61,605 bases of DNA from Gammaproteobacteria bacterium (GTDB taxonomy: Bacteria; Pseudomonadota; Gammaproteobacteria; Xanthomonadales; SZUA-36), in contig JAJFLB010000068.1 in NCBI GenBank assembly GCA_021772915.1, positions 1 to 61,605 on the forward strand. Reading direction: 5' to 3'. Made by a program: the position numbers and the translations under genes. Below the pieces are notes generated by a model. It searched no databases. It saw only the letters and a program-made list of their open reading frames with translations, and had not been told where the DNA came from. Below are positions 4,060 through 60,509 of this stretch, in pieces (the first letter of the stretch is position 1; every line of letters begins with the position of its first letter).

Positions 4060-5769
4060 ATGCCAAAGACCGAGTTCAGCAACGAGCTGCATGCTGAGAA
4101 GTATCGCAGCCAAGGGGAGACCTTCCGCGAAGGCATGAACCGCAACGCGGGTGCCGTCACCGGAAGCCAGGAACGGTACCAGATACTCCGTGAGATCCTG
4201 CACGTTCAGCGCTTCCTCATGGGAGGTCGCAATCAGTCTGCCTTGGGCAGCACGCGCAACGTCACCCCTTACAACTGCTTCGTCAGCGGGATCATTGAGG
4301 ACTCCTTCGTCGACGGCCACGGGTCCATCATGGAACGTGCCAAGGAAGCAGCCGCAACCATGCGCATGGGCGGCGGCATTGGGTACGACTTCAGTACCCT
4401 TCGCCCAAGGGGAGCGCTGATCAAGAAGCTGGACTCCTTCAGCTCGGGTCCGGTCAACTTCATGGAGATCTTCGACGCGGTCTGCCGATGCACAGCCAGC
4501 TCCGGCCACAGGCGCGGTGCCCAAATGGGAGTGCTGCGGGTGGACCACCCCGACATCGAGGAGTTCATCCACGCGAAGCAGAATCAGCACCGGCTGCGTG
4601 GCTTCAACATCAGCGTCGGTATCACGGACGAGTTCATGGAGGCAGTGCGCGACGACCTGCCGTTCGCGTTGCGTTGGGGTGGAGAAGTGTTCCGCACCAT
4701 CGACGCACGTCGGCTCTGGGACACCATCATGCGCAGCACGTGGGACTGGGCAGAGCCAGGGGTCATCTTCATCGACCGGCTCAACGAGTTCAACAACCTG
4801 TACTACTGCGAGACCCTGACCACGACTAACCCGTGCGGTGAACAACCGCTTCCACCCTTCGGTGCCTGCCTTCTGGGGTCATTCAACCTGGTGAAGTACC
4901 TTGCACCGTACACGGAGACCGACGGCGACGACGAGATCTACCGCTTCGATTGGGATCAGTTCAAGGCGGACATCCCGCCGGTGGTCCGCGCCATGGACAA
5001 CGTGGTGGACGTTGCCACCTACCCACTCTTCGAGCAGGAGCAGGAGGCCAAGAACAAGCGGCGCATGGGACTCGGGGTCACTGGGGTGGCCAACTGCATC
5101 GAAGCGCTCGGTCACGCCTACGGATCGCCTGCGTTCATCGCCACGCTCAGCAATATCCTGGAGTTCATGCGCGACGAATGCTACCGCGCAAGCATGGAGC
5201 TGGCGAAGGAGAAGGGTCCGTTCCCTGCGTTCCAGCGCGACGCCTACATCAACAGCGAGTTCGTCAAGCAGCTCCCGGCGAAGCTGGTCATCCAGATTGC
5301 CAAGCACGGGATCCGCAACAGCCACCTGCTGAGCATCGCTCCGACCGGCACCATCAGCATGTGCGCCGACAACGTGTCGTCCGGCATTGAGCCGGTGGTG
5401 GGGTTCCGGGTGCAGCGCACGTTCCAAACCTTCGACGGTCCAGTGGAGCTGGAGGTCGAGGACTACGGTGAGAAGTTCCTCGGGGTGCGCGGCAAGACGA
5501 TCGCCACGGCCACCGTCGACGACCATCTCGCTGTCCTCGCGACCGCCACCAAGTACATGGACAGCGCGGTGAGCAAGACCGTGAACGTCCCGGAGGACGC
5601 GGACTGGGACCAGTTCAAGGAGATCTACGTCCGAGCCTGGAAGGCTGGATGCAAGGGCATCACGACCTACCGCATGGGAGGGAAGCGGGAGGGCATTCTC
5701 AAGGTTTCTGAAGAAACTACCGAGTCGTGTAAGTACGACCCAGACACGGGAATACGAGAGTGCGAGTAG
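4060..5769 (+). CDS. nrdJ: Class II (B12-dependent) ribonucleotide reductase
   Basis: The product has 569 residues. The radical-site motif NPCGEQ (N257, C259, E261), the redox cysteines C73 (PYNCFV) and C270 (GACLLGSF), and the phosphate-binding LLSIAPTGTIS are all visible. The C-terminus has KGITTYRMGGKREG followed by two cysteines (ESCKY and RECE), the tail expected of adenosylcobalamin enzymes. No NrdB-like radical subunit occurs anywhere in the window, supporting class II rather than class I. It reduces ribonucleotides to supply dNTPs, and activity would depend on host cobalamin. Gene order places it between helicases and the first promoter of the modification region. Confidence 0.92.
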   Translation: MPKTEFSNELHAEKYRSQGETFREGMNRNAGAVTGSQERYQILREILHVQRFLMGGRNQSALGSTRNVTPYNCFVSGIIEDSFVDGHGSIMERAKEAAATMRMGGGIGYDFSTLRPRGALIKKLDSFSSGPVNFMEIFDAVCRCTASSGHRRGAQMGVLRVDHPDIEEFIHAKQNQHRLRGFNISVGITDEFMEAVRDDLPFALRWGGEVFRTIDARRLWDTIMRSTWDWAEPGVIFIDRLNEFNNLYYCETLTTTNPCGEQPLPPFGACLLGSFNLVKYLAPYTETDGDDEIYRFDWDQFKADIPPVVRAMDNVVDVATYPLFEQEQEAKNKRRMGLGVTGVANCIEALGHAYGSPAFIATLSNILEFMRDECYRASMELAKEKGPFPAFQRDAYINSEFVKQLPAKLVIQIAKHGIRNSHLLSIAPTGTISMCADNVSSGIEPVVGFRVQRTFQTFDGPVELEVEDYGEKFLGVRGKTIATATVDDHLAVLATATKYMDSAVSKTVNVPEDADWDQFKEIYVRAWKAGCKGITTYRMGGKREGILKVSEETTESCKYDPDTGIRECE

Positions 5770-6359: not shown

Positions 6360-7253
6360 ATGGCAGGACGTACCTACGAACGTCTCGGAATTGAGGTCTT
6401 CGGTGCTCATCTGATCGAGCACGAAGACCTTGATCCCGTTTATCTCGCATTGACGCGCACCGGTCTCGACTTCGACTGGACCCTGCGCTTTCTCGTCGCC
6501 TACTGGTGCTCGTACCACGTCGGCTTCTCGTGCTTCGCGGCGGACCACCCTGCGCCTGATTACTGGGACGTCATGAGAGCGTGGGCGGTCAATGACACAG
6601 AGGCTCCCGCTGGAGGCCGCTGGCCGCGTGGACACGAACGCAGGCACGCCAGGGGTAACTCCGGCCTGACCATGGTGCGGAAGCTGGAGGAGCGCTACCC
6701 GGAGCCGGAGCAGGCAGCTTCTACCCTCGCCTGCCTTGGGCATGACGGGGTCCTCCCCTGCAAGGCTGTCATGAAGACTGTGAAGGAGGAGTACCTGTTT
6801 GGCGACTGGATCGCCTTCAAGGTGGCCGACATGGCCTACAACGTATTGGACGTGGCAATCGACTTCGACGAAGCTGCGGTGTTCATGTTCAAGGATCCAC
6901 GCAAGGGAGCCAAGCTCTTCTGGCGTGGCGAGATGATCAAAGCGGGTGCGCTGACTGCCGAGCTGGCAAAGACGGCTGAGCCCAAGGACGAGATGGCGAT
7001 GATCCACGGGGTCGTGAAGCATCTCATTGAAGTGTTCGACGGTCACCTTGCTCCGCCCAAACGGGAGCGACCTGTGGGCGTGCTGGAAGTGGAGACCGTA
7101 CTGTGCAAGTGGAAGAGCCACCTCAATGGCCACTATCCGCTGTTCAACGACATCGACGAGATTCACGAGGGTCTCGTACCGTGGAGCGCTGTGAGCGAAA
7201 GCGCAGTAGCATTCGCCGACGCAATGCCCGGACAGGAGAGACGGAATGCCTGA
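6360..7253 (+). CDS. Amino acid:DNA transferase-like protein (thymidine hypermodification)
   Basis: The product has 297 residues. Key segments are RWPRGHERRHARG (87-99), FGDWIAFKVADM (147-158) and FMFKDPRKGA (175-184). These match my memory of the ADDT/aGPT-PPlase family, whose all-helical DNA-glycosylase-like fold displaces phosphate from phosphorylated 5-hydroxymethyl-dU in DNA and attaches an amino acid. The family assignment is by pattern, not search. The gene context of kinase, hmdU synthase-like enzyme, FAD enzyme and acetyltransferase strongly supports it. The stop overlaps the next start at 7246. Confidence 0.75.
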   Translation: MAGRTYERLGIEVFGAHLIEHEDLDPVYLALTRTGLDFDWTLRFLVAYWCSYHVGFSCFAADHPAPDYWDVMRAWAVNDTEAPAGGRWPRGHERRHARGNSGLTMVRKLEERYPEPEQAASTLACLGHDGVLPCKAVMKTVKEEYLFGDWIAFKVADMAYNVLDVAIDFDEAAVFMFKDPRKGAKLFWRGEMIKAGALTAELAKTAEPKDEMAMIHGVVKHLIEVFDGHLAPPKRERPVGVLEVETVLCKWKSHLNGHYPLFNDIDEIHEGLVPWSAVSESAVAFADAMPGQERRNA

Positions 7254-7611
7254 AGCTAAGCAACCTACCCGAGTGTACCTGATCGTTCACGACATGGGGT
7301 ACGACGGGACTGAAGTGACCGGAGTGTTCAGCCAGGAAGGGCCAGCGTACAAGTACGCCAAGCTCAGTGGTGAAAACTACGACGTGGTGCCGATGATCAT
7401 CGACAAGGGGATCCACCTTGCCGACCGCACACAGCGTGCGTACTCCGTCCGCTTCAACAAGGCAGGTGAAGTCACCAGCGCCAAGGAGTGCCCCATCACG
7501 CAGCTGCGGGAAGACTTCGAAGACCGCGAAGGAAACTTCTGCATGACAGTGGTTGCAAGCGACCTCACTGCTGCCGTCGTGAAGTCGCGAACACTCCGCA
7601 AAGGAGATTGA
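7246..7611 (+). CDS. Hypothetical protein in the modification region
   Basis: The product has 121 residues and starts inside the end of the transferase gene (8-bp overlap). It looks like a mixed alpha/beta protein (RVYLIVHDMGYDG, then VVPMIIDKGIHLAD) with two cysteines and no recognisable motif. A promoter follows immediately, so it ends the first modification transcript. Function unknown. Confidence 0.75.
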   Translation: MPEAKQPTRVYLIVHDMGYDGTEVTGVFSQEGPAYKYAKLSGENYDVVPMIIDKGIHLADRTQRAYSVRFNKAGEVTSAKECPITQLREDFEDREGNFCMTVVASDLTAAVVKSRTLRKGD

Positions 7612-7639
7612 TTGCATTTTGGCCGGTCACCAGTATAAT
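7612..7639 (+). promoter_or_regulatory. Promoter for second part of modification region
   Basis: TTGCAT (7612-7617), a 16-bp spacer and a perfect TATAAT (7634-7639). The first gene downstream starts at 7668. No other promoter or clear terminator was seen until about 14.6 kb, so this site probably drives the long coupled operon. Confidence 0.78.
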
Positions 7640-7667
7640 GGGTCCAGCTCCAACGAAAGGAAATGTC

Positions 7668-7751
7668 GTGCAACGAACACGGAGACTCATACTCCTGGCC
7701 ATGACTGGCGTCGCAATCGGCTTCACGATCGCACTCGCAGTGGCACTGTGA
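7668..7751 (+). CDS. 27-residue membrane peptide
   Basis: GTG 7668 follows CGAAAGGAAATGTC. The product is a short basic head (MQRTRRL) and one hydrophobic segment with a GxxxG-free helix ending ALAVAL. It overlaps the next gene by GTGA. Its position directly after a strong promoter and the good ribosome site argue it is translated, but it may act mainly as a leader that couples translation. Confidence 0.5.
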   Translation: MQRTRRLILLAMTGVAIGFTIALAVAL

Positions 7752-7960
7752 CAATACGTCGGTTCTGTGACCGGTGCGACGAGGAGATACCCGACACCGG
7801 TGCGATGACCGACGTGTTCATCGACAAGGTTGGCATGGTGACTCACGCGGAGGTTCTGGTCCTCTGCCACATCGACGACTCGACTCAGGAACCGATCCAA
7901 CAGAGCAAAGACCTGTGTGCCCCGTGCTACATCAGGTTCAAGGAGTGGTTTGGAGACTGA
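7748..7960 (+). CDS. Small zinc-ribbon-like protein
   Basis: The product has 70 residues from GTG 7748, overlapping the upstream stop. The pairs CDRC and CAPC flank about 46 residues, a spacing compatible with a zinc ribbon. Function unknown; possible nucleic-acid or protein-binding adaptor. Confidence 0.7.
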   Translation: MTIRRFCDRCDEEIPDTGAMTDVFIDKVGMVTHAEVLVLCHIDDSTQEPIQQSKDLCAPCYIRFKEWFGD

Positions 7961-7961
7961 G

Positions 7962-8285
7962 ATGGCTCGCATTGGTGGCTTGTGGCCGCAAGTTCAGTAC
8001 GTGATCGACGTCATGACAACGGACGGTTTCGAAGAGGTCATCACGACCCTGTACGACGTGCCGTTCGCTGGTGACTGGGACCGCGACACTGACGACGTTT
8101 CTGTCGGCTGCCTCTGGTCACCACGGGAACTCTTGGCTCAAACCCGGGAAGCGCAAAACTGGAGCGACTGTGCGGTCGTCCAAGATACTGAGGAACAAGA
8201 GCAACTCGTCAACGAGCGGCTCAACATCTACTTGAAAGATGAACCATGGACCTGGCTACTCTCACCCCCCAATACACCTACTTGA
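7962..8285 (+). CDS. Hypothetical protein
   Basis: The product has 107 residues from ATG 7962, one base after the preceding stop. It is acidic, with a WSPRELLAQTREAQNWSDC segment, and has no recognised domain. Its 3' end overlaps the next gene by 40 bp, which suggests tight operon packing. Confidence 0.7.
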   Translation: MARIGGLWPQVQYVIDVMTTDGFEEVITTLYDVPFAGDWDRDTDDVSVGCLWSPRELLAQTREAQNWSDCAVVQDTEEQEQLVNERLNIYLKDEPWTWLLSPPNTPT

Positions 8286-8542
8286 TACCCGGCAACCCGA
8301 CGTTCACTCGGGACCTGGTTGATGCCATTGACGTGGCGCTGACCGACGGGCAGATCAAGCTCAAGTCGGACGGCAGCACCAAGGCTGCTTCGGCCACCGT
8401 CGTCACCATCTGTGACCTGGTCACTCCCGACGGAACCTCGGTGTCTACGGGGTACGCTTTCTGCTCCCAGGAGTTCCGCCCGGAACTCGGCAACACCATT
8501 GCGCTGGGACGAGCACTGAAGCGCATCAAGGTACTGGTCTGA
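8246..8542 (+). CDS. Conserved phage hypothetical protein
   Basis: The product has 98 residues; ATG 8246 follows GAAAGATGAACC. The C-terminal pattern FCSQEFRPELGNTIALGRAL resembles a small phage protein seen near other early genes, but I have no function for it. It shares one base with the start of the FAD enzyme gene. Confidence 0.72.
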   Translation: MDLATLTPQYTYLIPGNPTFTRDLVDAIDVALTDGQIKLKSDGSTKAASATVVTICDLVTPDGTSVSTGYAFCSQEFRPELGNTIALGRALKRIKVLV

Positions 8543-9405
8543 TGTCCCGGGTCATCGTCGTTGGTGCTGGTCTCTTCGGCAGCATCATCGCAAAAGCACT
8601 GGAGCTGGACGGCCACATCGTCACTGTGCTGGACGACAACCGACCCATGTCCGGTTCCAAGCCGTCCGCCTGCCTCATGAAGCCGAGCTGGTTCAGCAGC
8701 ATGGGCAAGGACAAGCACGAGCCAAGCCTGGCGCTGCTTGACAAGATGTACGGACTCGAGGAGTTCGACTTCAAGGTCCGACCCAGCGGCATTGCCACCA
8801 GCTCATACCGCATTGATCCAAGCAAGGCTCTCCTCATCAATCGTCCAGGCAGCTACATGGAAGGTCTGGTCACCTACGTCGGACCGGACCACGTCAAGGT
8901 GTCTGAGCTCAAGACGGAGACGGGAGTCCGCAACGTCACCATGCGAGCGGACCACATCATCGTCGCGGCTGGCGTCTGGTGTGGCAAGATCCTGGCCGAA
9001 GCAGCTCAGTGGGACATCCGCCCCACCGCCGGGATCGTCTTCCGCACGAAGGGTGCGCAGTGCTCGGAGAACCGCATTGACGTGTGGGCTCCGTACAAGC
9101 AGTTGGTTGGGTTCCAAGAGTACGACGACCAGGTCTGGATCGGGGACGGCTCTGCCATTCTCGAGAAGAACTGGAAGGACAAGCGCATCGCTCAGTCGGT
9201 TGCACGGTGCGAGAAGTTCGCTCACTCTTTGGGCGTCGCGGGGACAACCGAATCAATCCAAGGACTACGTCCGTACGTGAAGGGTGCCAAGCCGTGCCTC
9301 TTCGAGCAGGTCTCGCCCAAGGTGTGGCTGGCAACGGGTGGAGCAAAGAACGGTACAATCGCCGCTGGCTGGGTAGCCAGTGAGCTCAGGAAGGCACTCT
9401 CATGA
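8542..9405 (+). CDS. FAD-dependent oxidoreductase/lyase (DAO fold)
   Basis: The product has 287 residues. A Rossmann GAGLFG (8-13) begins the chain (MSRVIVVGAGLFGS), and a C-terminal ATGGAKNGTIAAGW (264-277) closes the FAD site, as in D-amino-acid/glycine oxidase-type enzymes. No membrane anchor is visible. Published work on thymidine hypermodification describes flavin-dependent lyases that trim an amino acid already attached to the base. With a transferase at 6360 and an acetyltransferase overlapping its 3' end by four bases, that is the most likely role here. An oxidase acting on a free amino acid is the alternative. Confidence 0.82.
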   Translation: MSRVIVVGAGLFGSIIAKALELDGHIVTVLDDNRPMSGSKPSACLMKPSWFSSMGKDKHEPSLALLDKMYGLEEFDFKVRPSGIATSSYRIDPSKALLINRPGSYMEGLVTYVGPDHVKVSELKTETGVRNVTMRADHIIVAAGVWCGKILAEAAQWDIRPTAGIVFRTKGAQCSENRIDVWAPYKQLVGFQEYDDQVWIGDGSAILEKNWKDKRIAQSVARCEKFAHSLGVAGTTESIQGLRPYVKGAKPCLFEQVSPKVWLATGGAKNGTIAAGWVASELRKALS

Positions 9406-9833
9406 AGGTGAGCATCAGACCCGCAGTCAAGGAGACAGATCACAAGCTCATCCTCGACATTGCGAAGCAATCGAAGTTCACCAAGGACTTCGGCTCCATC
9501 ATGTTCAGCTCGGACGAAAGCTACAACAAGGGGTGGATCCGGGTGGCAACGCTCGGGGATGAGATCATCGGGTTCACTTGCGTCCGGCACTGCATGCCGA
9601 AGCGCGGGGAGACGGTGCTGTACTTCATCACAGTACACGACAAGTTCCGCAGCCACTCCATTGGTGGTGTGATGATGAAAGACCTCGAAGAGCAGACACC
9701 GCACAAGCGGATTGCGCTCAACGTGGCCAAGGACAACCCGCGTGCCGTCTCTTTCTATGAGCGGCTCGGGTTCACAACGCAACACGGCGATGCGATCAAA
9801 GGCACCGCGTTCCACATGACAAAGGAGCTATGA
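9402..9833 (+). CDS. GNAT-family N-acetyltransferase
   Basis: The product has 143 residues. The acetyl-CoA site is seen in FITVHDKFRSHSIGGVMMK (75-93) and the classical late motif is NPRAVSFYERLGF (112-124). It is ATGA-coupled to the FAD gene upstream and to the cysteine-rich gene downstream. I infer that it acetylates the amine left on the modified thymidine. Acetylation of a host or phage protein cannot be excluded from sequence. Confidence 0.88.
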   Translation: MKVSIRPAVKETDHKLILDIAKQSKFTKDFGSIMFSSDESYNKGWIRVATLGDEIIGFTCVRHCMPKRGETVLYFITVHDKFRSHSIGGVMMKDLEEQTPHKRIALNVAKDNPRAVSFYERLGFTTQHGDAIKGTAFHMTKEL

Positions 9834-10843
9834 TGCACGAAGCAAGGAGGGCTGTCACCGTGGCAGTCAAAGGAGGCTTCCCCATGTTCGGGGGAGACCT
9901 GGAACTCGGTGGCACAATGGAGCTGAGGATCGGCGGCGGCAAGTCGATCACCTGTCGGTTGGTGCACGTTGACCACCTGATCGACCAAGGACAACTCGAG
10001 TACCGCTTCGAGGAAGTGCCGTCTTGCGACAAGTCGTTCGCCAACTGCCAGAACCCCACCCGCTTTGGTGGGTTCCCCGGTGGGCCGTATGGTGCCAACG
10101 TCTGTTCTCACATCTTCAAGGACACGCGGTGTGGTGTGGGCTGCTGCCCGCTCTGCGAGAACGACGTCGACAAGTGCGAGTGCGACAAGGAAGTCAACGA
10201 GCCAGATCCCAACGGATGCTACCAGAGCCCGATGTACGACAAGATCGGCAACTGCGAAGAGTGCAACCAAGTGCTCTGCTCTGGCGACGGGTACGAGTCC
10301 TACAGCGACAACTACCTGGTCTGCAAGCCGTGCGTGCACGGCAACAAACCTGTCGTTGCCGAGAGGAAACCGTTCGCCTCGGGCGGAATAGTGTCGCCAA
10401 AGACAGTAATGAAGGAAGTCGCCAAGACCCTGGTGCAGAAGATCGTCGAACAGGCGGTCAAGGATTCCTGGAAGGTCGAGCGACAGAACGTGCTGTGTGC
10501 GGACAGACAGCAGGACTGGTGCCTGTACGTGCCGCCGGTTGATGAGATGGAAGAGGCGCGGCGCATCAAGGTCGAGTGGCCTGAAGACGAAGCCGAGCGC
10601 CACTACCTCATGGACGAGATGCTGACCCTGCAGTTCGACCAGTGGGACATGCTGAAGGAGTACCGACAGCAGCTCAACACCTTCACCGACGACAACCCAA
10701 TCCCCATGTCGCTCGTCTACAAGATGCACGGCATCAAGCCATGGAAGAAGCCGGAACCCCAGTGCCTCAAGGAGACCTGCCCGCACCCAGGCAACGGTCA
10801 CAGCAAGGACTGCGCGTGGGCTCAGTGGAAAGGCATCGTATGA
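9830..10843 (+). CDS. Cysteine-rich, probable zinc-binding protein of unknown function
   Basis: The product has 337 residues, ATGA-coupled on both sides (to the acetyltransferase and to the kinase). About 20 cysteines include CCPLCEND, CECDKE, CEECNQVLC and VCKPC, suggesting two or more zinc ribbons in residues 65-170. The N-terminal 65 residues look like a beta-rich domain (ELRIGGGKSITCRLVHVDH). A helical region follows, and the C-terminus has another cysteine/histidine cluster (CLKETCPHPGNGHSKDC). I do not recognise the family. Its coupling inside the modification operon makes it a candidate DNA-binding or enzyme-scaffold component. Confidence 0.78.
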   Translation: MMHEARRAVTVAVKGGFPMFGGDLELGGTMELRIGGGKSITCRLVHVDHLIDQGQLEYRFEEVPSCDKSFANCQNPTRFGGFPGGPYGANVCSHIFKDTRCGVGCCPLCENDVDKCECDKEVNEPDPNGCYQSPMYDKIGNCEECNQVLCSGDGYESYSDNYLVCKPCVHGNKPVVAERKPFASGGIVSPKTVMKEVAKTLVQKIVEQAVKDSWKVERQNVLCADRQQDWCLYVPPVDEMEEARRIKVEWPEDEAERHYLMDEMLTLQFDQWDMLKEYRQQLNTFTDDNPIPMSLVYKMHGIKPWKKPEPQCLKETCPHPGNGHSKDCAWAQWKGIV

Positions 10844-11442
10844 TCGTCAACATCAGAGGCACGAGCGGGTCAGGGAAGTCAACCCTGGCTCGCAAGATCA
10901 TGGCCGAGTTCCCGACGCGGATCCCGCTGCTGCGTCAGGGTGCCAAGGCTGACGTGCCTGGACCGAAGTCTCGTCCTTACGCCTACCTGTTCAAGCACCC
11001 GTCGAAAGCGGTGGATGACCTGGTGGTGCTCGGGCACTACGAAGCGGAGTGCGGTGGGTGCGACACGATCCCGTCGTTCGACGCCATGTACGAGCTGGCG
11101 AGGGAAGCCTCGGACCAAGGCTTCAACGTCCTCATGGAGGGGCTCCTCCTGAGCGCGGAGAGCCGTCGCATGATCGAGCTGGCCTTCGCCCGGGACGTGC
11201 TGGTCATTGGCCTGGACGAGTCCCTAGAGACCTGCATCGACTCCGTCAATGAGCGGCGCTGGAGGAAGAACCCGGACAAGCCAGGGGTCAACCCGAAGAA
11301 CACCGAGTCCAAGTGGAAGGGAACCCGGTCGACGATGGAGAAGCTCACCGTCGCTGGAGTCACTGCCATATGGGCCGACAGAGAACAGGCGTACGAGATC
11401 CTCTACGAGGCACTCATCGACCTGCAGGAGACACCGCTATGA
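10840..11442 (+). CDS. P-loop kinase, candidate 5-hmdU DNA kinase
   Basis: The product has 200 residues. Walker A is GTSGSGKS (7-14), and later VNERRWRKNP supplies lid-type arginines. This is the AAA_33/zeta-toxin-like kinase type used as the catalytic part of phage 5-hydroxymethyl-dU DNA kinases. Those enzymes phosphorylate the hydroxymethyl group of hmdU in DNA and so activate it for amino acid transfer. In this genome the associated helical domain is in a separate gene (11642). A free-nucleotide kinase is possible but less consistent with the neighbours. Confidence 0.78.
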   Translation: MIVNIRGTSGSGKSTLARKIMAEFPTRIPLLRQGAKADVPGPKSRPYAYLFKHPSKAVDDLVVLGHYEAECGGCDTIPSFDAMYELAREASDQGFNVLMEGLLLSAESRRMIELAFARDVLVIGLDESLETCIDSVNERRWRKNPDKPGVNPKNTESKWKGTRSTMEKLTVAGVTAIWADREQAYEILYEALIDLQETPL

Positions 11443-11645
11443 GAAAGTGGCGACAGTACCTGTTCAACACCGTAGCGCTGCTGCTGTTCGCTGTGGGGTG
11501 CACCTTGCTCCCCTTGGGCACCTGGCTGCTGCTCGAACCAACCACTACCTGGGAGAAGATCGGAACGATCGTGGTCTGCCTGCCCGCCTTGGGCGTCAGC
11601 TTCATGTGCACCCTGATGGTCTTCAAATTGGTGGCTGACTCATGA
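11439..11645 (+). CDS. Two-helix membrane protein
   Basis: The product has 68 residues with two hydrophobic segments (YLFNTVALLLFAVGCTLLPL and IGTIVVCLPALGVSFMCTL) joined by a short polar turn. It overlaps both neighbours by four bases. The membrane topology is clear, the function is not; it is unexpected between two DNA-modifying enzymes. Confidence 0.7.
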   Translation: MRKWRQYLFNTVALLLFAVGCTLLPLGTWLLLEPTTTWEKIGTIVVCLPALGVSFMCTLMVFKLVADS

Positions 11646-12469
11646 TCGACGTGGGCAGCTTCTTCGAGTTTGCGAGGGAGAGGTACAGGATATTCCTCGC
11701 GAAGGAAAGCGGTGAGCCGAGGCCATGGACCGATGACCCGGTGCTACTGCGATATTCCTTTTGCAACATCTTCCGCGAGGACGACAAAGTGTCGCGTTAC
11801 CTGAAGCGTGAGGTCCGAGACCCGGTCGCCCAAAAGGCGTACTGTCTTGAGGCTGTCGCAGGTATGCGCTGGTTCAACCGGATTGAAGTCGTCGAACGCA
11901 TCAAGGACATTCTGGTTTCGCAGGGGTGGAATAGTGGTATGATCGGTGCGCGGCTCGCAGGAGTCAGCCCGCTTGTCACCGGAGCATACATGATCAAAAC
12001 ACCTGCCGGGATGAACAAGCTGGAAGGCATCTGCGACTGTATGGACAAGCTGGTCTCAATGAAGCTGGAAGTCGGCGGCATGAAGCTGCAAGACGCCCAC
12101 GCTGAGATCATGAAAGCACCGTACCTCGGCTCATTCATGGCATACGAAATCGTCACGGACCTGCGGCACACACCACTGCTCTGTGACGCACCTGACATCG
12201 ACTCTTGGACCGTTGCTGGACCAGGAGCCGCACGCGGACTTGGCTGGATCCTGTATGATGATCCGACCACGTTCAGCTACACCAGCAAGCATCAGCAAGA
12301 CCGAATGCTTGGTTACATGCGCGAACTCCTCGGAGCATCCCGTGGCGGGGACAACTGGCCACAAGGGTGGCCGGACTGGGAGATGCGCGAAGTCGAACAT
12401 ACCCTCTGCGAGTACGACAAGTGGCGTCGTGGAAGCAAAGGACAGAAACTGAAGAGGCTCTACCGATGA
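11642..12469 (+). CDS. 5-hmdU DNA kinase-type helical domain protein
   Basis: The product has 275 residues. PWTDDP (28-33), FCNIFREDDKV (40-50), LGSFMAYEIVTDL (162-174) and VAGPGAARGL (191-200) match the HMUDK helical (formerly aGPT-PPlase) family, a DNA-glycosylase-like fold. In known phages this domain belongs to the thymidine hypermodification machinery, often with the P-loop hmdU kinase. Here the kinase is a separate gene 200 bp upstream, so the two probably form a complex. Alternatively this protein is a second amino acid transferase. Confidence 0.8.
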   Translation: MIDVGSFFEFARERYRIFLAKESGEPRPWTDDPVLLRYSFCNIFREDDKVSRYLKREVRDPVAQKAYCLEAVAGMRWFNRIEVVERIKDILVSQGWNSGMIGARLAGVSPLVTGAYMIKTPAGMNKLEGICDCMDKLVSMKLEVGGMKLQDAHAEIMKAPYLGSFMAYEIVTDLRHTPLLCDAPDIDSWTVAGPGAARGLGWILYDDPTTFSYTSKHQQDRMLGYMRELLGASRGGDNWPQGWPDWEMREVEHTLCEYDKWRRGSKGQKLKRLYR

Positions 12470-13533
12470 AAGTCATCCACGCACCCAACGTTGGCTGTGC
12501 ATTGTACGAAGGAATTCGCTACCTCAAAGAGTATGGCATGGACGAGCCGTCCCGGAACGGACCCGTGAAGGTGGCTCCCAACCCGGTTGTGACGCTCTAC
12601 AACAACCCCTGCCAGCGCGTGCTTACCGACCCGGTGCGTGACGCCAACCCGTTCTTTCACTTCATGGAGTCACTGTGGATGATCGCCGGTCGCAACGACG
12701 TGGCCTGGATCTCCCGGTTCAGCAGCGGCATTGCACAGTACAGCGACGATGGTGTGATCTTCCACGGCGCGTATGGCCATAGGTGGCGGCACTACTTCGG
12801 CAGCGACCAGATCGAAGTGATATGCAACGCACTCAGGGCCAACCCTCAGTGCCGCCGACAGATCCTCCAGATGTGGGATCCGATCGCGGACCTGGGAATG
12901 GAAGGAAAGGACTTCCCCTGCAACCAGTCAGCGCACTTCCAGGTGAAACACGGGCGGCTCGAGATGACCGTCTTCAACAGGAGCAACGACGTCGTGTTCG
13001 GCGCTTACGGTGCCAACGCAGTCCACTTCTCCATGCTCCTCGAGTACATGGCCGCAAAGGTCGGCGTCCCCGTCGGAAGATACTGGCAAGTGTCGGACAA
13101 CTACCATGTCTACGACAACGTGATGACGAAGAAGAAACTGTGGGGCCTGGCTGACAAGGCACCCGACGGGTATCACACCAAGACGTATCCCGACCCGTAC
13201 GAGTGGAAAGAAATCGAACCTTACCCGATGGTCAAGGACCCAGAGAAGTGGGACCGCGACCTTCACATGTTCATGGAGAACGGCGCTGAGTGCTACGGCT
13301 ACAACGAGCCGTTCTTCCGGAGAGTGGCCGTGCCGCTGCTGCGAGCATGGAACACCTACAAGGACGGAGACAAGCGTGCCGCCATTCGTGAGCTGGACGC
13401 ATGCTCTGCTACCGACTGGAAGAAAGCGTGCACCGAATGGCTTACTCGAAGATTGACACCATCCGTTACCTCCGGGAATCAGGAAACGTCGAACGAGCCC
13501 ACAACCTCCCCCACCGGGGAAGCTACTCCGTAG
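12466..13533 (+). CDS. Thymidylate synthase-family enzyme, probable dUMP hydroxymethylase
   Basis: The product has 355 residues from ATG 12466. Visible ThyA landmarks are E68 (FFHFMESLW), YGHRWR (103-108), the R130/R131 phosphate clamp, catalytic C152 in DFPCNQ, RSND (172-175), N184 (YGAN, the uracil-reading asparagine) and DNYHVYDN (211-218). Retained N184 argues for dUMP rather than dCMP as substrate. The usual His after the catalytic Cys is Asn here and the loop before N184 is one residue longer, changes that fit a hydroxymethylase rather than a methylating synthase. The product would be 5-hydroxymethyl-dUMP. The last ~32 codons overlap the next gene. Confidence 0.82.
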   Translation: MKVIHAPNVGCALYEGIRYLKEYGMDEPSRNGPVKVAPNPVVTLYNNPCQRVLTDPVRDANPFFHFMESLWMIAGRNDVAWISRFSSGIAQYSDDGVIFHGAYGHRWRHYFGSDQIEVICNALRANPQCRRQILQMWDPIADLGMEGKDFPCNQSAHFQVKHGRLEMTVFNRSNDVVFGAYGANAVHFSMLLEYMAAKVGVPVGRYWQVSDNYHVYDNVMTKKKLWGLADKAPDGYHTKTYPDPYEWKEIEPYPMVKDPEKWDRDLHMFMENGAECYGYNEPFFRRVAVPLLRAWNTYKDGDKRAAIRELDACSATDWKKACTEWLTRRLTPSVTSGNQETSNEPTTSPTGEATP

Positions 13534-13967
13534 GCAAGCACTGCTACGACATGACAGTGCTCTGCCTGCAGCTCAACCCGGACCCGTCCGTGGAGCTACT
13601 CAGGGCCATCAACTACCACGACGTGCCAGAGCGGACCACAGGCGACCTGCCCGCTCCGGCCAAGTGGAGCTGGCCGCTCATGACGGCAGAGTACGAAGTC
13701 GCTGACCGTGCCGTGCACTCCTTCTTGGGCACCAGGGTCGAGCTGACTGAATCAGACAACAAGTGGCTCAAGGGTCTTGACGCCTTTGAGTTCTACCTGT
13801 GGTGCCTCGATGAGACCGCCATGGGAAACCGCAATGCCGAGAACTGCTTGGAGCAGATCACGGAGTACCTCGACGCGAAGGTCGACTTGCCCAAAGAGAT
13901 CAAGGAGATCTACGATGAGTACCGAGCTACCGGATGGAAGCGAACCTGTGAGCAGCTACCTCAGTAA
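13437..13967 (+). CDS. HD-domain nucleotide phosphohydrolase (YfbR-like)
   Basis: The product has 176 residues from ATG 13437. Metal-binding residues H35 (VGKHCYDM), H61-D62 and E65 (NYHDVPERTTGD) follow the 5'-nucleotidase YfbR/HD pattern. Phages with modified bases often encode an HD or other phosphohydrolase that removes the competing normal nucleotide. Here the candidates are dTMP/dTTP, keeping thymine out of the DNA. That role is inferred from position right after the probable hmdU synthase, whose frame it overlaps by 97 bp. Confidence 0.8.
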   Translation: MAYSKIDTIRYLRESGNVERAHNLPHRGSYSVGKHCYDMTVLCLQLNPDPSVELLRAINYHDVPERTTGDLPAPAKWSWPLMTAEYEVADRAVHSFLGTRVELTESDNKWLKGLDAFEFYLWCLDETAMGNRNAENCLEQITEYLDAKVDLPKEIKEIYDEYRATGWKRTCEQLPQ

Positions 13968-14271
13968 GCTGGAAGGAATCAGCGCACTCGACGTGAGTGG
14001 GTTGAAGAAGGCTGAGGAGAGTTACGGCGACTCTTGGAAGCGTCGTGGTGGAGTTGGTGCCTTTATGATGCTGGCCCGCAAGTGGGACAGGTTGGAGAAT
14101 CGAGTCAAGAGTGACCCGACTCCATACGACATCTTCAAACACATTGCCGCCGACACCCGTGGGGAAGGGCTGATCGACGACATTCGTGACCTGCGCCGAT
14201 ATCTCATGCTTGTGGAAGCAGAGATGGTTGCGCGGGGAACCCAACTCGGAGGTCACAGAGACGATGCCTAG
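13915..14271 (+). CDS. Nmad1/DUF1599-like nucleotide-modification-associated protein
   Basis: The product has 118 residues from ATG 13915 behind AAGGAG. The pattern ESYGDSWKRRGGVGAF (35-50), KWDRLENRV (56-64) and a final DIRDLRRYLMLVEAEM is the arrangement of the small helical DUF1599/Nmad1 family, described as associated with phage nucleotide modification. Its biochemical role is unknown. It overlaps the HD gene by 53 bp and is the last recognisable member of the modification set. Confidence 0.7.
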   Translation: MSTELPDGSEPVSSYLSKLEGISALDVSGLKKAEESYGDSWKRRGGVGAFMMLARKWDRLENRVKSDPTPYDIFKHIAADTRGEGLIDDIRDLRRYLMLVEAEMVARGTQLGGHRDDA

Positions 14272-15215: not shown

Positions 15216-15761
15216 GTGGGGCTCGAAAAGCTCTTTGATCTCCTGCTCGAATTCCTTGACCTCTTCCGTTTCTGGCAAGTGGTTGATCAATACGAGCAGG
15301 GGATCGTTCTCCAACTGGGGAAGTTCAGGCGCGACCTGAAGACTCCTGGACTCAAGATCATCTGCCCGTTCGGCATTGACCAGGTGTTCACCGTGAACGT
15401 GACCCTGCACACGATGAACCTGCGGACGCAGACGCTGACCCAGAAGGACGGCAAGACGATTGTGATGTCTCCGGTCCTGAGCTACCGGATCCGCGATGCG
15501 AAGAAGTTCACGCTGGAAGCTGAGTCGGCCGACGACGCACTGGCTGACATCACCTACGGCACGGTGGCGGAAATGGTTCGCCAGTCCACCATGGAAGAAA
15601 TGATGGACGACACGTGGCATGAGCTGCTGTACAAGGAAGTGCGGCGGCAAGGCTTCGCCTTCGGCATTGAAGTGCTGGCGGTAAGGTTGAGCGACTTCGG
15701 TGCGCTGCGCACCATCAGGCTCATCAACTCGGACGATGCAACGGCAGGCGAAGAAGAGTGA
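15216..15761 (+). CDS. SPFH/band 7-like protein
   Basis: The product has 181 residues from GTG 15216, immediately after the previous stop. An amphipathic N-terminal helix (LFDLLLEFLDLFRFW) precedes the stomatin/prohibitin signature YEQGIVLQLGKFRRDLKTPGLKI and later QTLTQKDGKTIVMSPVLSYRI. Such proteins assemble on membranes. The phage role is unknown, though it may anchor replication at the membrane. It overlaps the polymerase start (GTGA). Confidence 0.82.
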   Translation: MGLEKLFDLLLEFLDLFRFWQVVDQYEQGIVLQLGKFRRDLKTPGLKIICPFGIDQVFTVNVTLHTMNLRTQTLTQKDGKTIVMSPVLSYRIRDAKKFTLEAESADDALADITYGTVAEMVRQSTMEEMMDDTWHELLYKEVRRQGFAFGIEVLAVRLSDFGALRTIRLINSDDATAGEEE

Positions 15762-17755
15762 CATACCCGGTACTGTTCCCACCCAAGTCTGACTGGAGGC
15801 CACCAGCCCGCAAGGACTGGATCGACTTCCGCAAAGAGAAGCGCATTGCGCTCGACTTGGAGACGAAGAACCCTGCCATCAAGACGCTCGGTGCGCGTGA
15901 CCCGGACGGTGCCATCATCGGCTTCGCCGTCGCCACACCGGACGGTCGCAGCATGTACCTCCCCATTGGGCATGCCGGCGACAACCTCGATGAGACTGAA
16001 GTCATCGAGTTCATGGTTCACCAGTTTCAATACTTCGAAGGCGACATCGTTGGGGCCAAGCTCGAGTACGACATGGACTGGTGCCTTCAGTACGGCATCA
16101 CGTTCCCCAAGGTCCACCGGTGGCGCGACATTCAGGTGGCCGAGCCGCTCATCGACGAGAACCAAGACCGGTACGCACTGGACCTGGTCGCCCAACGGTA
16201 CGGCATTCCAGGCAAGGACGAGTCACTCCTGAAGGAAGCTGCCCTCGCCTTCGGCGTCCACCCGAAGAAGGAGATGTACAAGCTCCCGGCACGGTACGTG
16301 GGCGCTTACGCTGAGCAGGACGTGGACCTGCCTCTGGAGCTGCTAGAGCGCCAGGAAAAGCTCATCGTGGAGCAGGGTCTGGAGGACATCTACGACCTCG
16401 AGTGCAAGCTCACCCCGATCCTTGTGGCCATGCGTCGACACGGCGTCCGCATGGACCTAGCCCGCATGGATGAGATCGAGCTGTGGTCACTGAACGAGGA
16501 GGAAGCGGCGCTGCGTGAGGTCCGAGACTTCACCGGCTGCGAGATCCGACCCGGCGACATGCAGAAGGCAGCAATCGTGGCTCCGTGCATCGAAGCACTG
16601 GGGTTCCGCGTGCCTCTCTCACCGAAGACCCAGAAGCCAAGTATCACCGACGAGTTCATGGAGTCGCTGGAACACCCAGTGGCCGAGCACTTGCGTCGTG
16701 CCAGGAAGATGGCGTCAGTGCGGACCAAGTTCTTGAACGGCTGGAGGGCTCACCTGGTTGGCGACCGTCTGCACGGCACGTTCAACCAGCTCAAGTCGGA
16801 GAGGGAGGACGGGAAGGGTAAGGGCACCGTGTCCGGCCGACTGAGTTCAACGAGTCCCAACCTGCAGCAGATTCCCGCAAGGGATCCGGAGTTGGGACCG
16901 TTGCTCAGATCGTGCTTCTTGCCAGACGAAGGTATGGAGTGGGCGTCAATCGACTACAGCCAGCAAGAGCCACGCATGACCGTGCACTACGCCACGCTGC
17001 GCAAGCTGCAGAAGGCACTGTTCACCGCCGAGCTGTACCGGGATGACCCGAAGGCTGACCACCACAACATGATGGCGACCCTGATCTACGGACCCGGGTT
17101 CACCAAGCAACAGCGCGGGTACGCCAAGGAGATCTTCCTCGGCCTGGCCTACGGCATGGGCGGTGCAAAGCTCTGTGACAAGCTCGGACTACCGACCCGG
17201 TGGTCGGTGTTCTGGAAGGGTGGCAACCGTCGCCCCATGGAACACTTCCAGAAGGAGTCGGAAGCACGCAAGGTCGCACGCGACAGCCAGGGCATCTGCT
17301 TCCGGTCTGCCGGCAAGGAAGGCCAAGCGATCATCGACGCCTTCAACAAGTCGGTGCCGTTCGTGAAGAAGCTCGCCAAGGAGTGTCAAGCGAAAGCTGA
17401 GAAAGCATACCGGATCAAGACCCTTCTTGGGCGACTCTGCCGGTTCGTCAAGAACAAGTATGGCAAGTACGACTTCCACAAAGCACTGAACCGCCTGATC
17501 CAAGGCTCGTGCGCGGACATGACCAAGAAGGCACTCATCGACTGCTTCGAAGCCGGGTACTTCATCCAGCTCCAAGTGCACGATGAGTTGTGTACCTCGG
17601 TCCGCGACCGGGCTCACGCTGACGGAATTGCCACCGTCATGGAGGACTGCGTCGACCTGCTGTTGCCGGTCGGCACTGACGTGGAGATGGGCCCAAGCTG
17701 GGGCCACTCAATGGTGCCCAAGGAGAAGTGGGCTGAGAAAGGACTAGCAGCATGA
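15758..17755 (+). CDS. polA: Family A DNA polymerase with 3'-5' exonuclease
   Basis: The product has 665 residues from GTG 15758. Exo I is ALDLETKNP (D33, E35). Exo II is KLEYD (101-105; the usual Asn is Lys). Exo III is YAEQDVD. Polymerase motif A is SIDYSQQEPR (D399), motif B is RGYAKEIFLGLAYG (R453, K457), and motif C is QVHDEL (H608-D609-E610). There is no 5' nuclease domain. The position equivalent to E. coli Phe762 is Leu461. This is the replicative polymerase and would have to accept hmdUTP if the modification model is right. Confidence 0.96.
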   Translation: MTYPVLFPPKSDWRPPARKDWIDFRKEKRIALDLETKNPAIKTLGARDPDGAIIGFAVATPDGRSMYLPIGHAGDNLDETEVIEFMVHQFQYFEGDIVGAKLEYDMDWCLQYGITFPKVHRWRDIQVAEPLIDENQDRYALDLVAQRYGIPGKDESLLKEAALAFGVHPKKEMYKLPARYVGAYAEQDVDLPLELLERQEKLIVEQGLEDIYDLECKLTPILVAMRRHGVRMDLARMDEIELWSLNEEEAALREVRDFTGCEIRPGDMQKAAIVAPCIEALGFRVPLSPKTQKPSITDEFMESLEHPVAEHLRRARKMASVRTKFLNGWRAHLVGDRLHGTFNQLKSEREDGKGKGTVSGRLSSTSPNLQQIPARDPELGPLLRSCFLPDEGMEWASIDYSQQEPRMTVHYATLRKLQKALFTAELYRDDPKADHHNMMATLIYGPGFTKQQRGYAKEIFLGLAYGMGGAKLCDKLGLPTRWSVFWKGGNRRPMEHFQKESEARKVARDSQGICFRSAGKEGQAIIDAFNKSVPFVKKLAKECQAKAEKAYRIKTLLGRLCRFVKNKYGKYDFHKALNRLIQGSCADMTKKALIDCFEAGYFIQLQVHDELCTSVRDRAHADGIATVMEDCVDLLLPVGTDVEMGPSWGHSMVPKEKWAEKGLAA

Positions 17756-18284: not shown

Positions 18285-18483
18285 CCCTGAGCTCAAAGCG
18301 CAGATGAAGGAGCAGCTACGTGCCCACCTCAACGGAGAACTCCCAGCCAATGTCACCGACGACTTGGCAGTCCCGATTCATGAGTATGTCCCAACTCGTG
18401 GCCTCATGGAGCAAGGATCCATCAACCCAAGTCGGGGCAGTGATAGTCAACCAGAAGCGTCGGGTGGTGGCAACGGGGTATAA
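18172..18483 (+). CDS. Hypothetical helical protein
   Basis: The product has 103 residues from ATG 18172 behind GAGGAGAAG. It is a charged helical protein (MRNMIREFKKTQ, ELKAQMKEQLRAHL). The 5' third lies inside the preceding zinc-finger-like gene and the 3' third lies inside the dCMP deaminase gene, so only the middle is free coding sequence. Function unknown. Confidence 0.6.
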   Translation: MFIDKEMRNMIREFKKTQPHGVRNQVQRQMRAAYEGADPELKAQMKEQLRAHLNGELPANVTDDLAVPIHEYVPTRGLMEQGSINPSRGSDSQPEASGGGNGV

Positions 18484-18778
18484 TGGGTTCCCCGCTGGCG
18501 TAGAGGACCTCACCGAGCGCTACGAAAACCGCGACCTGAAGTACAAGCTGGTGGTTCACGCTGAGGCGAACGCCATACTCAACGCGGTGGCCTCTGTGGA
18601 AGGGTGCTGCATCTTCGTGACGCAGCCGCCATGCCAGGAGTGCGCCAAGCTCATCATCCAATCCGGCATCACCTACGTGGTGTCGCCCACCCCGACTGCC
18701 GAGTTCCTGGCGCGGTGGGACTCAACCGCAACCGAACTCATGTTCGCCGAAGCAGGCGTGAGTTGGGAATGCATCTAA
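18350..18778 (+). CDS. dCMP deaminase
   Basis: The product has 142 residues. Zinc ligands are H70 in VHAEANA (with catalytic E72) and C95/C98 in PPCQEC. The N-terminus WQSRFMSMSQLVASWSKDPS matches family members. I prefer ATG 18350 (behind AACGGAGAACTCC); the frame is also open from GTG 18320. The enzyme makes dUMP from dCMP, which would feed the TS-family hydroxymethylase at 12466. Confidence 0.93.
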   Translation: MSPTTWQSRFMSMSQLVASWSKDPSTQVGAVIVNQKRRVVATGYNGFPAGVEDLTERYENRDLKYKLVVHAEANAILNAVASVEGCCIFVTQPPCQECAKLIIQSGITYVVSPTPTAEFLARWDSTATELMFAEAGVSWECI

Positions 18779-25876: not shown

Positions 25877-25925
25877 CTAAGTGAGTGAGGCAATTCCGCC
25901 TCGCTCAGAAAAGGAGATGGTTACC

Positions 25926-60253: not shown

Positions 60254-60330
60254 GGTCCTGTAGCCCAACTGGCAGAGGCGTCGGTCTCAGAAACCGAAGG
60301 TTGTTGGTTCGACTCCAACCAGGACTACCA
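60254..60330 (+). tRNA. tRNA with CAG anticodon, short variable arm
   Basis: The acceptor GGTCCTG pairs with CAGGACT, discriminator A and encoded CCA at 60328-60330. Anticodon loop CTCAGAA gives CAG (reads CUG, Leu). The T-arm is canonical. The body is only 74 nt with a five-base variable loop, whereas bacterial tRNA-Leu is class II with a long arm, so identity by anticodon may not be the charged amino acid. Confidence 0.8.
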
Positions 60331-60331
60331 T

Positions 60332-60405: not shown

Positions 60406-60421
60406 CTTTTCAGAAACGAAT

Positions 60422-60497: not shown

Positions 60498-60509
60498 TTT
60501 GAAATCAGG

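What the first reader, a model, noticed from the sequence alone, without database searches (positions are those of the whole stretch)
6360..14271. Complete candidate thymidine hypermodification pathway
One + strand region encodes an amino acid:DNA transferase-like protein (6360), FAD enzyme (8542), GNAT (9402), P-loop kinase (10840), hmdU-kinase-type helical protein (11642), TS-family probable dUMP hydroxymethylase (12466), HD phosphohydrolase (13437) and Nmad1-like protein (13915). Work on phages ViI and M6 described this logic: 5-hmdU in DNA is phosphorylated, an amino acid is attached and then sculpted by flavin enzymes or acetyltransferases. dCMP deaminase (18350) would supply dUMP.
Basis: partly seen in the sequence, partly recalled or inferred. 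Interest (0 to 1): 0.92.

Follow-up and report, generated by a model that had tools for sequence, protein, structure and literature searches.

The report
Phage gene cassette decorating its thymines
A complete phage genome, far from any phage record compared, carries a gene set that very probably turns part of its thymine into a bulkier, amide-capped form to dodge bacterial DNA-cutting enzymes; it is a distant new member of a system already known from Pseudomonas phages.

Summary
The 'Nmad1-like' protein at 13915 matches no such family. The window is a circularly closed siphovirus genome.

The best model is not M6 or ViI but Pseudomonas phage PaMx11, whose cassette is colinear. The transferase and FAD protein align full length with PaMx11 gp46 (PDB: 5-phosphomethyl-dU glycinyltransferase) and gp47 (PDB: flavin-dependent lyase). 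M6's gp52 and gp53 have no counterpart here. Predicted route: 5-hmdU in DNA is phosphorylated, receives glycine, is cleaved to 5-aminomethyl-dU, then acylated by the GNAT, probably to 5-acetylaminomethyl-dU. Virion DNA chemistry is untested.

One result goes further. Of 32 distinct flavin-lyase loci, 8 carry this GNAT, 16 an amidoligase-like protein with glutamine-synthetase-type structural neighbours, 8 neither, none both. 5-aminomethyl-dU looks like a branch point finished in alternative ways. The window itself is a new member of a known kind; the amidoligase branch is the part worth pursuing.

The parts
4060..5769 (+). Ribonucleotide reductase large subunit, upstream neighbour as in PaMx11
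   Evidence: Pfam PF02867 E=4.4e-108; same position as PaMx11 nrdA
6360..7253 (+). Amino acid:DNA transferase, predicted 5-phosphomethyl-dU glycinyltransferase
   Evidence: PF18724 1.2e-19; PDB 8z2m Glycinyltransferase E=6.8e-76, which is PaMx11 gp46 residue for residue
7246..7611 (+). Small ORF inside the cassette, function unknown
   Evidence: DUF7336 1.3e-4, below cut-off; no match at E<=1e-4 in any other locus
7917..8285 (+). Small ORF inside the cassette (start uncertain; overlaps the end of a mechanical ORF at 7619-7960), conserved in the nearest relative
   Evidence: no Pfam match; homologue in L012 E=1.1e-33
8246..8542 (+). Small ORF inside the cassette, conserved in the nearest relative
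   Evidence: weak Phage_gp49_66 0.013, below cut-off; homologue in L012 E=1.3e-19
8542..9405 (+). Flavin-dependent lyase: predicted to convert N-alpha-glycinyl-dT to 5-aminomethyl-dU
   Evidence: PDB 8z2o/8z79 Flavin-dependent lyase E=2.5e-71 = PaMx11 gp47; best NCBIfam relative glycine oxidase ThiO 2.8e-10, far below its cut-off; alignment A1
9402..9833 (+). GNAT acyltransferase predicted to cap the 5-aminomethyl group
   Evidence: PF00583 3e-13; 45-67% identical to GNATs in the same slot of PaMx11, Ab18, Epa5, L012, L021, L026 and 40% to L027
9830..10843 (+). Cys-rich orphan, 4-base overlaps on both sides
   Evidence: no Pfam, PHROG, NCBIfam, phage tblastn or IMG/VR relative
10840..11442 (+). 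P-loop kinase, predicted catalytic subunit of the 5-hmdU DNA kinase
   Evidence: 47-48% identical to PaMx11 gp49 and kin; 29% over 146 residues to M6 gp54; HMUDK_HMUD1 0.0018, below cut-off; Zeta_toxin above cut-off
11313..11645 (+). Small ORF before HMUDK_hel (start uncertain), function unknown
   Evidence: no Pfam match; no relative among the loci
11642..12469 (+). HMUDK_hel protein, predicted DNA-handling partner of the kinase
   Evidence: PF18723 8.9e-38; AlphaFold2 pLDDT 93.2; best but not significant structural neighbours gp46 and DNA glycosylases
12466..13533 (+). Thymidylate-synthase-family enzyme, predicted dUMP hydroxymethylase
   Evidence: phrog_5131 6.9e-126; shares RSND followed by GxxGAN with SPO1 gp29, where T4 gp42 has Asp for the Asn and the C56 protein lacks RSND
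13437..13967 (+). HD phosphohydrolase (YfbR-like), probably acts on a deoxynucleotide such as dTMP
   Evidence: PF12917 1.4e-7, PRK03826 5'-deoxynucleotidase 4.5e-7, below cut-off; same slot as PaMx11 gp52
13915..14271 (+). Small conserved protein of unknown function (not shown to be Nmad1)
   Evidence: no Pfam match at E<=10; homologues in L012 4.8e-52 and L016 1.3e-16
15758..17755 (+). DNA polymerase (family A type), the enzyme that would incorporate 5-hmdUTP
   Evidence: phmmer match to ORFs annotated DNA polymerase in PaMx11, Ab18, M6, MW2, Sonora and TM26; not scanned against Pfam
18350..18778 (+). dCMP deaminase, supplies dUMP
   Evidence: PF00383 1.6e-24; position as PaMx11 gp56

Best explanation
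The region is a post-replicative thymidine hypermodification cassette of the PaMx11 type in a new phage. (1) dCMP deaminase supplies dUMP and the TS-family enzyme makes 5-hydroxymethyl-dUMP; the HD enzyme lowers the competing dTMP pool. (2) After conversion to the triphosphate by host kinases, 5-hmdU replaces T during synthesis by the phage polymerase. (3) The P-loop protein with its HMUDK_hel partner phosphorylates 5-hmdU in DNA to 5-phosphomethyl-dU. (4) The ADDT protein displaces the phosphate with the amino group of glycine, giving N-alpha-glycinyl-dT. (5) The flavoenzyme oxidises the glycine Calpha-N bond and releases a two-carbon fragment, leaving 5-aminomethyl-dU. (6) The GNAT acylates that amine, probably to 5-acetylaminomethyl-dU. 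The modified DNA would resist restriction enzymes. Shown: gene content, order, and orthology of steps 4 and 5 to enzymes of solved structure. Inferred: glycine as the amino acid, kinase assignment, dUMP specificity, the HD substrate, acetyl as the acyl group, sites and extent of modification.
For: Gene order colinear with PaMx11 gp44-gp59. The ADDT aligns full length to PDB 8z2m, identical to PaMx11 gp46 and titled '5-phosphomethyl-2'-deoxyuridine (5-PmdU) glycinyltransferase gp46/PUGT'. The FAD protein aligns to 8z2o 'Flavin-dependent lyase', identical to PaMx11 gp47; its best NCBIfam relative is glycine oxidase ThiO (2.8e-10, 39.8 bits against a cut-off of 250.8), which fits oxidation of a glycine Calpha-N bond. 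TS-family sequence features match SPO1 gp29 dUMP hydroxymethylase. HMUDK_hel E=8.9e-38. M6 gp52 and gp53 find no window ORF at E<=1. Six junctions (8542, 9402, 9830, 10840, 11642, 12466) overlap the preceding ORF by 1-4 bases. All 15 phage records with this GNAT at E<=1e-5 are among the 18 with the flavin lyase (four phages appear twice in each list). GNAT and amidoligase never occur together in 32 distinct flavin-lyase loci, as expected if both act on the same amine.
Against: No nucleoside analysis exists. The P-loop protein scores under the Pfam cut-off for HMUDK_HMUD1 and above it for Zeta_toxin. The closest PDB relative of the GNAT found by phmmer is YpeA (E=2.4e-5), so its substrate is not anchored by a structure, and in its acetyl-CoA loop it has Ser where 6 of 7 aligned relatives have Gly (L027 has Lys; the motif is recalled). 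Amino acid choice is not deducible from sequence alone. At least five ORFs inside the cassette have no counterpart in PaMx11 and could alter the product. The papers on PaMx11 and M6 enzymes (Lee 2022, Wen 2024) are not held and their content is recalled.
Confidence: 0.78

Rival explanations
1. The pathway stops at 5-aminomethyl-dU, and the GNAT is inactive on DNA or acts on another substrate (a protein or metabolite).
For: Phage Sonora and other loci have transferase plus flavin lyase and no such GNAT: 8 of 32 distinct loci have neither GNAT nor amidoligase. The GNAT loop residue is atypical.
Against: This GNAT type overlaps the lyase gene by 4 bases in the window, occurs in 8 distinct loci between lyase and P-loop gene, and where it is missing an amidoligase lies in the same slot in 13 loci.
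Confidence: 0.15
2. A different amino acid or a longer acyl group is used, or the extra cassette proteins (7246-8542, 9830-10843, 11313-11645) elaborate the base further, so the product is a new base.
For: Transferase only 47% identical to PaMx11 gp46; at least five ORFs with no PaMx11 counterpart lie inside the cassette, one of them with 4-base overlaps on both sides.
Against: The 9830 gene is absent from the nearest relative L012, which has an unrelated 117-aa ORF there and keeps the core; no enzyme domain was found in the orphan; the transferase residues invariant across ten relatives are kept.
Confidence: 0.15
3. An M6-type pathway ending in 5-(2-aminoethyl)-dU.
For: Shared transferase, kinase pair, TS and HD genes.
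Against: M6 gp52 and gp53 find nothing in the window at E<=1, while they find phage MW2.
Confidence: 0.03
4. A collection of nucleotide-metabolism genes without DNA hypermodification.
For: No chemistry has been measured.
Against: Same core genes in the same order in PaMx11 and Ab18 and, by profile, in Epa5 and IMG/VR contigs; ADDT and HMUDK_hel are named for DNA hypermodification (Pfam descriptions).
Confidence: 0.03

Closest known systems
Pseudomonas phage PaMx11 gp46-gp56 cassette (Abidjanvirus, Bradleyvirinae, Mesyanzhinovviridae)
   Same: Same core enzymes in the same order: transferase, FAD enzyme, GNAT, P-loop, HMUDK_hel, TS-family, HD, polymerase, dCMP deaminase
   Different: 45-48% protein identity for four proteins (transferase, FAD, GNAT, P-loop); at least five extra ORFs inside the cassette; by megablast the 16-kb region shares no more than 70 bases with any of 50,697 phage records
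Pseudomonas phage M6 / YuA cassette (Yuavirus)
   Same: Transferase, P-loop and HMUDK_hel pair, TS-family, HD, polymerase, dCMP deaminase
   Different: M6 has gp52 and gp53 (PLP and radical-SAM by recall) and no flavin lyase or GNAT of this type in the stretch searched; its base is 5-(2-aminoethyl)-dU (PMC6449724, passages seen)
Salmonella phage ViI 5-(2-aminoethoxy)methyl-dU system
   Same: 5-hmdU intermediate (PMC6449724, passages) and HMUDK_hel relatives in Salmonella, Klebsiella, Serratia and Escherichia phages of about 155-161 kb
   Different: There HMUDK_hel is 21-25% identical over 53-93% of the query, or 42-47% over only 16-19% (listed rows; ViI itself not listed); tailoring genes not compared
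Stenotrophomonas phage Sonora
   Same: Transferase followed directly by flavin lyase, then nucleotide kinase, HMUDK_hel and TS
   Different: No GNAT found; a PF18757-annotated protein lies between HMUDK_hel and TS
Phage Simon (PQ683277, an unverified record from raw sewage) and 15 distinct IMG/VR contigs with an amidoligase
   Same: Flavin lyase with transferase, P-loop and HMUDK_hel in the contigs long enough to show them
   Different: No GNAT; amidoligase-like protein instead, in 14 of 16 with an LMW phosphatase-like protein; 13 of 16 in the GNAT slot, 3 upstream of the lyase

Membership tests
PaMx11-type thymidine hypermodification cassette | Glycinyltransferase orthologous to gp46 | tested here: met
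   Full-length match to 8z2m, E=6.8e-76; 47% identity
PaMx11-type thymidine hypermodification cassette | Flavin-dependent lyase orthologous to gp47 | tested here: met
   E=2.5e-71 to 8z2o; 46% identity
PaMx11-type thymidine hypermodification cassette | GNAT next to the lyase, orthologous to gp48 | tested here: met
   45% identity, same slot; activity not tested
PaMx11-type thymidine hypermodification cassette | P-loop plus HMUDK_hel pair | tested here: met
   P-loop 48% to PaMx11 gp49; HMUDK_hel matches the PaMx11 ORF at 1.2e-66 and is 43-45% identical in Lucjan, Ab19 and Epa43; kinase activity not tested
PaMx11-type thymidine hypermodification cassette | 5-aminomethyl- or acetylaminomethyl-dU in virion DNA | not testable with these tools
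   no virions, no mass spectrometry
dUMP hydroxymethylase (TS superfamily) | Catalytic Cys, uracil-reading Asn, and hydroxymethylase-type sequence as in SPO1 gp29 | tested here: met
   alignment with SPO1 gp29, T4 gp42 and the TS-family protein on contig C56: Cys kept, Asn of GAN kept (Asp in T4 gp42), RSND shared with SPO1 gp29 and T4 gp42; the role of these residues is recalled and activity is not tested
M6-type (5-NedU) pathway | Relatives of M6 gp52 and gp53 next to the transferase | tested here: not met
   no window ORF of 50 aa or more at E<=1; both find MW2 and M6
Nmad1 / DUF1599 | Match of the 13915 protein to the family | tested here: not met
   no Pfam match at E<=10, no NCBIfam match at E<=0.1
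Mesyanzhinovviridae | Replication and modification module colinear with members; siphovirus genes; genome about 60 kb | tested here: met
Mesyanzhinovviridae | Placement by whole-genome or gene-sharing tree | not tested
   not run
5-hmdU DNA kinase HMUDK_HMUD1 (PF18748) | P-loop protein above the curated cut-off | tested here: not met
   18.2 bits against 27; called a kinase by position and homology to PaMx11 gp49 and M6 gp54, not by this model
Amidoligase_2 (PF12224), for the proteins in related loci | Score above the curated cut-off | tested here: inconclusive
   one of three proteins scanned reaches it (23.0 against 22); two are below (15.7 and 16.5)

The most novel reading that the evidence does not exclude
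5-aminomethyl-dU is a modular branch point. Flavin-lyase phages finish it in alternative ways: left free, acylated by a GNAT (this window), or joined to a carboxylic or amino acid by a glutamine-synthetase-type amidoligase that usually travels with a small phosphatase-like protein. The last would give aminoacyl- or peptide-like side chains on DNA. Phage lineages seem to have exchanged these modules, mostly in the same gene slot.
Probability: 0.45. Interest if true: 0.68.

Novelty: new member of a known kind. Interest (0 to 1): 0.42.

Why it matters
It puts a near-complete cassette for a capped aminomethyl-thymine in a phage far from the sequenced Pseudomonas isolates, in an assembly whose bacterial family shows the transferase in no other of 38 genomes searched. 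It gives enzymes 46-47% identical to the solved gp46 and gp47 for testing which residues choose the amino acid. The mutually exclusive GNAT and amidoligase loci offer a concrete way to look for new DNA bases: the amidoligase branch predicts aminoacylated DNA and names one sequenced phage (Simon) in which to look.

Tried and rejected
Rejected: M6-type product (no relatives of M6 gp52 or gp53). Rejected: Nmad1 for 13915. Rejected: 'terminase small subunit' for the P-loop protein, the PHROG label and that of several records; it sits in the modification cassette beside HMUDK_hel, and a packaging module with large terminase lies at 31176. Dropped on recheck: a claim that loss of a ThyA Trp marks the window enzyme as a hydroxymethylase. 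In the alignment the two Trp of the C56 protein fall on a gap and a Tyr in the window (gap and Phe in SPO1 gp29), but T4 gp42 keeps one of them, and I am not sure which Trp the literature means.

Led nowhere: relatives of the 9830 orphan (none; 3 pattern matches in IMG/VR, none confirmed); Rfam on the window (only tRNAs reached the threshold); PADLOC on nine proteins (none at E<=0.01); genome-contig scan with the flavin lyases (one partial match, 40% over 50 residues, on a Planctomycetota MAG contig, not pursued), which did not name the host. Host identity remains unknown. HMUDK_hel gave no significant PDB match (best E 0.31). In the flavin-lyase tree only 10 of 29 inner branches were well supported, so the number of module swaps is uncertain.

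Rows dropped before counting: of 37 flavin-lyase rows I dropped 5 near-copies, judged by equal record length (L014 = PaMx11, L029 = Epa5) or equal ORF starts (L025 = L024, L019 within L020, L038 = L036), leaving 32. The Planctomycetota fragment L042 was not counted. Close but not identical pairs were kept (for example L031/L032, L035/L041, L003/L011). L041 and L039 are partial contigs. Only 6 of the 18 phage records with the flavin lyase were fetched. Notebook entry 3 overstates two points: not all loci without GNAT carry the amidoligase, and phage Simon is a sewage record not shown to be cultured. Entry 4's remark on Trp is superseded as above.

Full report
What the window is. The 61,605-base window is the whole of contig C65 in a 4.68-Mb, 71-contig assembly. 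Its first and last 141 bases are identical, as in a circular contig closed by the assembler, so the unique length is 61,464 bases. Of ten large ORFs scanned, PHROGs names large terminase, portal, head morphogenesis, major head, minor tail, tape measure, structural, tail and exonuclease proteins; there are nine tRNAs. It reads as a complete siphovirus genome. By megablast, DNA similarity of the 16-kb region around the cassette to phage records is almost nil: three of 50,697 records match stretches of 63-70 bases. Protein-level relatives are mostly phages of Mesyanzhinovviridae.

The observation. ADDT, HMUDK_hel, thymidylate synthase family, GNAT, DAO-type flavoprotein, YfbR-like HD and dCMP deaminase pass curated Pfam cut-offs. 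The P-loop protein does not pass the cut-off of the 5-hmdU kinase model (18.2 bits against 27); the one model it does pass is Zeta_toxin (25.7 against 22.3). It is 47-48% identical to the protein in the same place in PaMx11 and relatives and 29% identical over 146 residues to M6 gp54. The 13915 protein has no Nmad1 match. ORFs overlap the preceding one by 1-4 bases at 8542, 9402, 9830, 10840, 11642 and 12466, which suggests translational coupling; the ORFs preceding 8542 and 11642 are small ones of unknown function.

Closest system. PaMx11 has the order nrdA, gp45, gp46, gp47 FAD, gp48 acetyltransferase, gp49, gp50, gp51 TS, gp52 HD, gp53, gp54, gp55 polymerase, gp56 dCMP deaminase. phmmer with window proteins identifies gp46 as transferase, gp49 as P-loop and gp50 as HMUDK_hel. 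The window has the same order with at least five extra ORFs inside. Two PaMx11 enzymes have crystal structures. The PDB chain called Glycinyltransferase (8z2m) is gp46 residue for residue, with the entry title '5-phosphomethyl-2'-deoxyuridine (5-PmdU) glycinyltransferase gp46/PUGT'. The chain called Flavin-dependent lyase (8z2o, 8z79) is gp47. The window proteins match them over nearly their full length at E=6.8e-76 and 2.5e-71. From recall only, since the papers are not held: Lee et al. 2022 reported that thymidine hypermodifications derive from free amino acids trimmed by radical-SAM, PLP, flavin and acetyltransferase enzymes, and Wen et al. [quoted passage not shown] Passages of PMC9599517 already group TS and aG/PT-PPlase1 of M6-like and PaMx11-like phages with thymidine hypermodification, and passages of PMC11946847 do so for a Pseudomonas phage of the same family.

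Chemistry. The best NCBIfam relative of the flavoprotein is glycine oxidase ThiO (2.8e-10, well below that model's cut-off), which fits oxidation of the glycine moiety to leave an aminomethyl group. The same change, carboxymethylaminomethyl to aminomethyl on uridine, is made in tRNA by MnmC (recalled). The TS-family protein was aligned with SPO1 gp29 (dUMP hydroxymethylase), T4 gp42 (dCMP hydroxymethylase) and a TS-family protein on contig C56 of the same assembly. The window enzyme keeps the catalytic Cys, has RSND followed by GxxGAN as in SPO1 gp29, and lacks the Asp that T4 gp42 has for that Asn; the C56 protein has RSAD and FNIAS. This supports dUMP hydroxymethylation; the meaning of these residues is recalled.

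Not the M6 branch. M6 carries gp52 and gp53, annotated threonine dehydratase and DNA repair photolyase (PLP and radical-SAM enzymes by recall), between transferase and kinase. phmmer with these two finds phage MW2 and M6 itself but no window ORF of 50 aa or more at E<=1. M6 DNA contains 5-(2-aminoethyl)-dU and ViI 5-(2-aminoethoxy)methyl-dU (PMC6449724, passages). There 44 of 77 resistant restriction sites in M6 contained TG or TC (same passages), a pattern worth testing here.

HMUDK_hel. An AlphaFold2 model of the 11642 protein is confident (pLDDT 93.2, pTM 0.89). No PDB match is significant; the five best are gp46 (8z2n, 8z2m) and DNA glycosylases, E 0.31 to 0.62. It may be a base-flipping DNA-binding partner of the P-loop kinase; this is weak inference.

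A branch point. Thirty IMG/VR loci encode relatives of the flavin lyase; with six fetched phage records and the window, 37 loci carry it. Removing five near-copies leaves 32. A profile search at E<=1e-5 finds the GNAT in 8, an amidoligase-like protein in 16, neither in 8, both in 0. Of all 37 rows: 10 GNAT only, 17 amidoligase plus phosphatase-like, 2 amidoligase only, 8 neither. In 13 of the 16 distinct amidoligase loci the gene lies downstream of the lyase, in the GNAT slot; in L023, L034 and L037 it lies upstream. Pfam Amidoligase_2 reaches its cut-off in one of three proteins scanned (23.0 against 22) and is below it in two; the small partner matches LMWPc in three of three. An AlphaFold2 model of one amidoligase (pLDDT 90.9, pTM 0.88) was compared with the PDB: 248 matches with E<=10, nine with E<=0.001, and the 50 shown are glutamine synthetases, gamma-glutamylcysteine or glutamate-cysteine ligases, glutathione synthetases and YbdK. 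The best E is 1.3e-4, but superposition is loose: TM normalised to the query 0.32-0.44 and rmsd 16-20 A for those nine. This points to the carboxylate-amine ligase superfamily, and the substrate amine could be 5-aminomethyl-dU. On the flavin-lyase tree GNAT needs 5 changes (shuffled mean 7.3, 9 of 500 shuffles as low) and amidoligase 6 (mean 10.9, 3 of 500), with at least 2 each forced by supported branches. Modules seem to have been exchanged more than once, but the labels are also clustered, the tree is poorly resolved, and the loci are not independent. Among 50,697 phage records tblastn with the Simon amidoligase finds only Simon itself and one Vibrio phage at 31%. One paper search (amidoligase + phage + DNA modification) gave four papers; I saw passages of two and listings of two, none linking an amidoligase to thymidine. 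Lee 2022 may contain it and was not read, so I do not claim it is unpublished.

Verdict. A well-supported, near-complete PaMx11-type thymidine hypermodification cassette in a new phage: real and coherent, a new member of a known kind. The more open question is how the aminomethyl intermediate is finished in different phages.

Noticed in passing
L008, L013, L015-L018, L020, L022-L024, L030, L033, L034, L036, L037, L039: Amidoligase-like protein with glutamine-synthetase-type structural neighbours in 16 of 32 distinct flavin-lyase loci, none of which has the GNAT; 13 in the GNAT slot, 14 with an LMW phosphatase-like protein.
   Followed up: partly
window 9830-10843: 337-aa Cys-rich protein with no relative in the libraries and collections searched, overlapping its neighbours by 4 bases; absent from the nearest relative L012.
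   Followed up: partly
window 15216-15758: SPFH/Band_7 domain protein (PF01145 1.4e-16) just upstream of the DNA polymerase, an unexpected membrane-type domain where PaMx11 annotates a hypothetical protein.
   Followed up: no
window 10840-11442; PaMx11 gp49; M6 gp54: The predicted 5-hmdU kinase P-loop protein belongs to a PHROG named 'terminase small subunit', a label repeated in several records, probably a propagated misannotation.
   Followed up: partly
window 60254-61068: Cluster of nine tRNA genes near the end of the contig; the Trp gene at 60921 does not reach the Rfam threshold.
   Followed up: no
window 25881-26945: DUF932 protein (PF06067 5.4e-41; phrog_1221), unknown role.
   Followed up: no
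L009:11456-12166 (phage Sonora): A protein annotated with PF18757 lies between HMUDK_hel and TS; it has relatives in M6 gp56, MW2 and L028 (E about 1e-9), none found in the window.
   Followed up: partly
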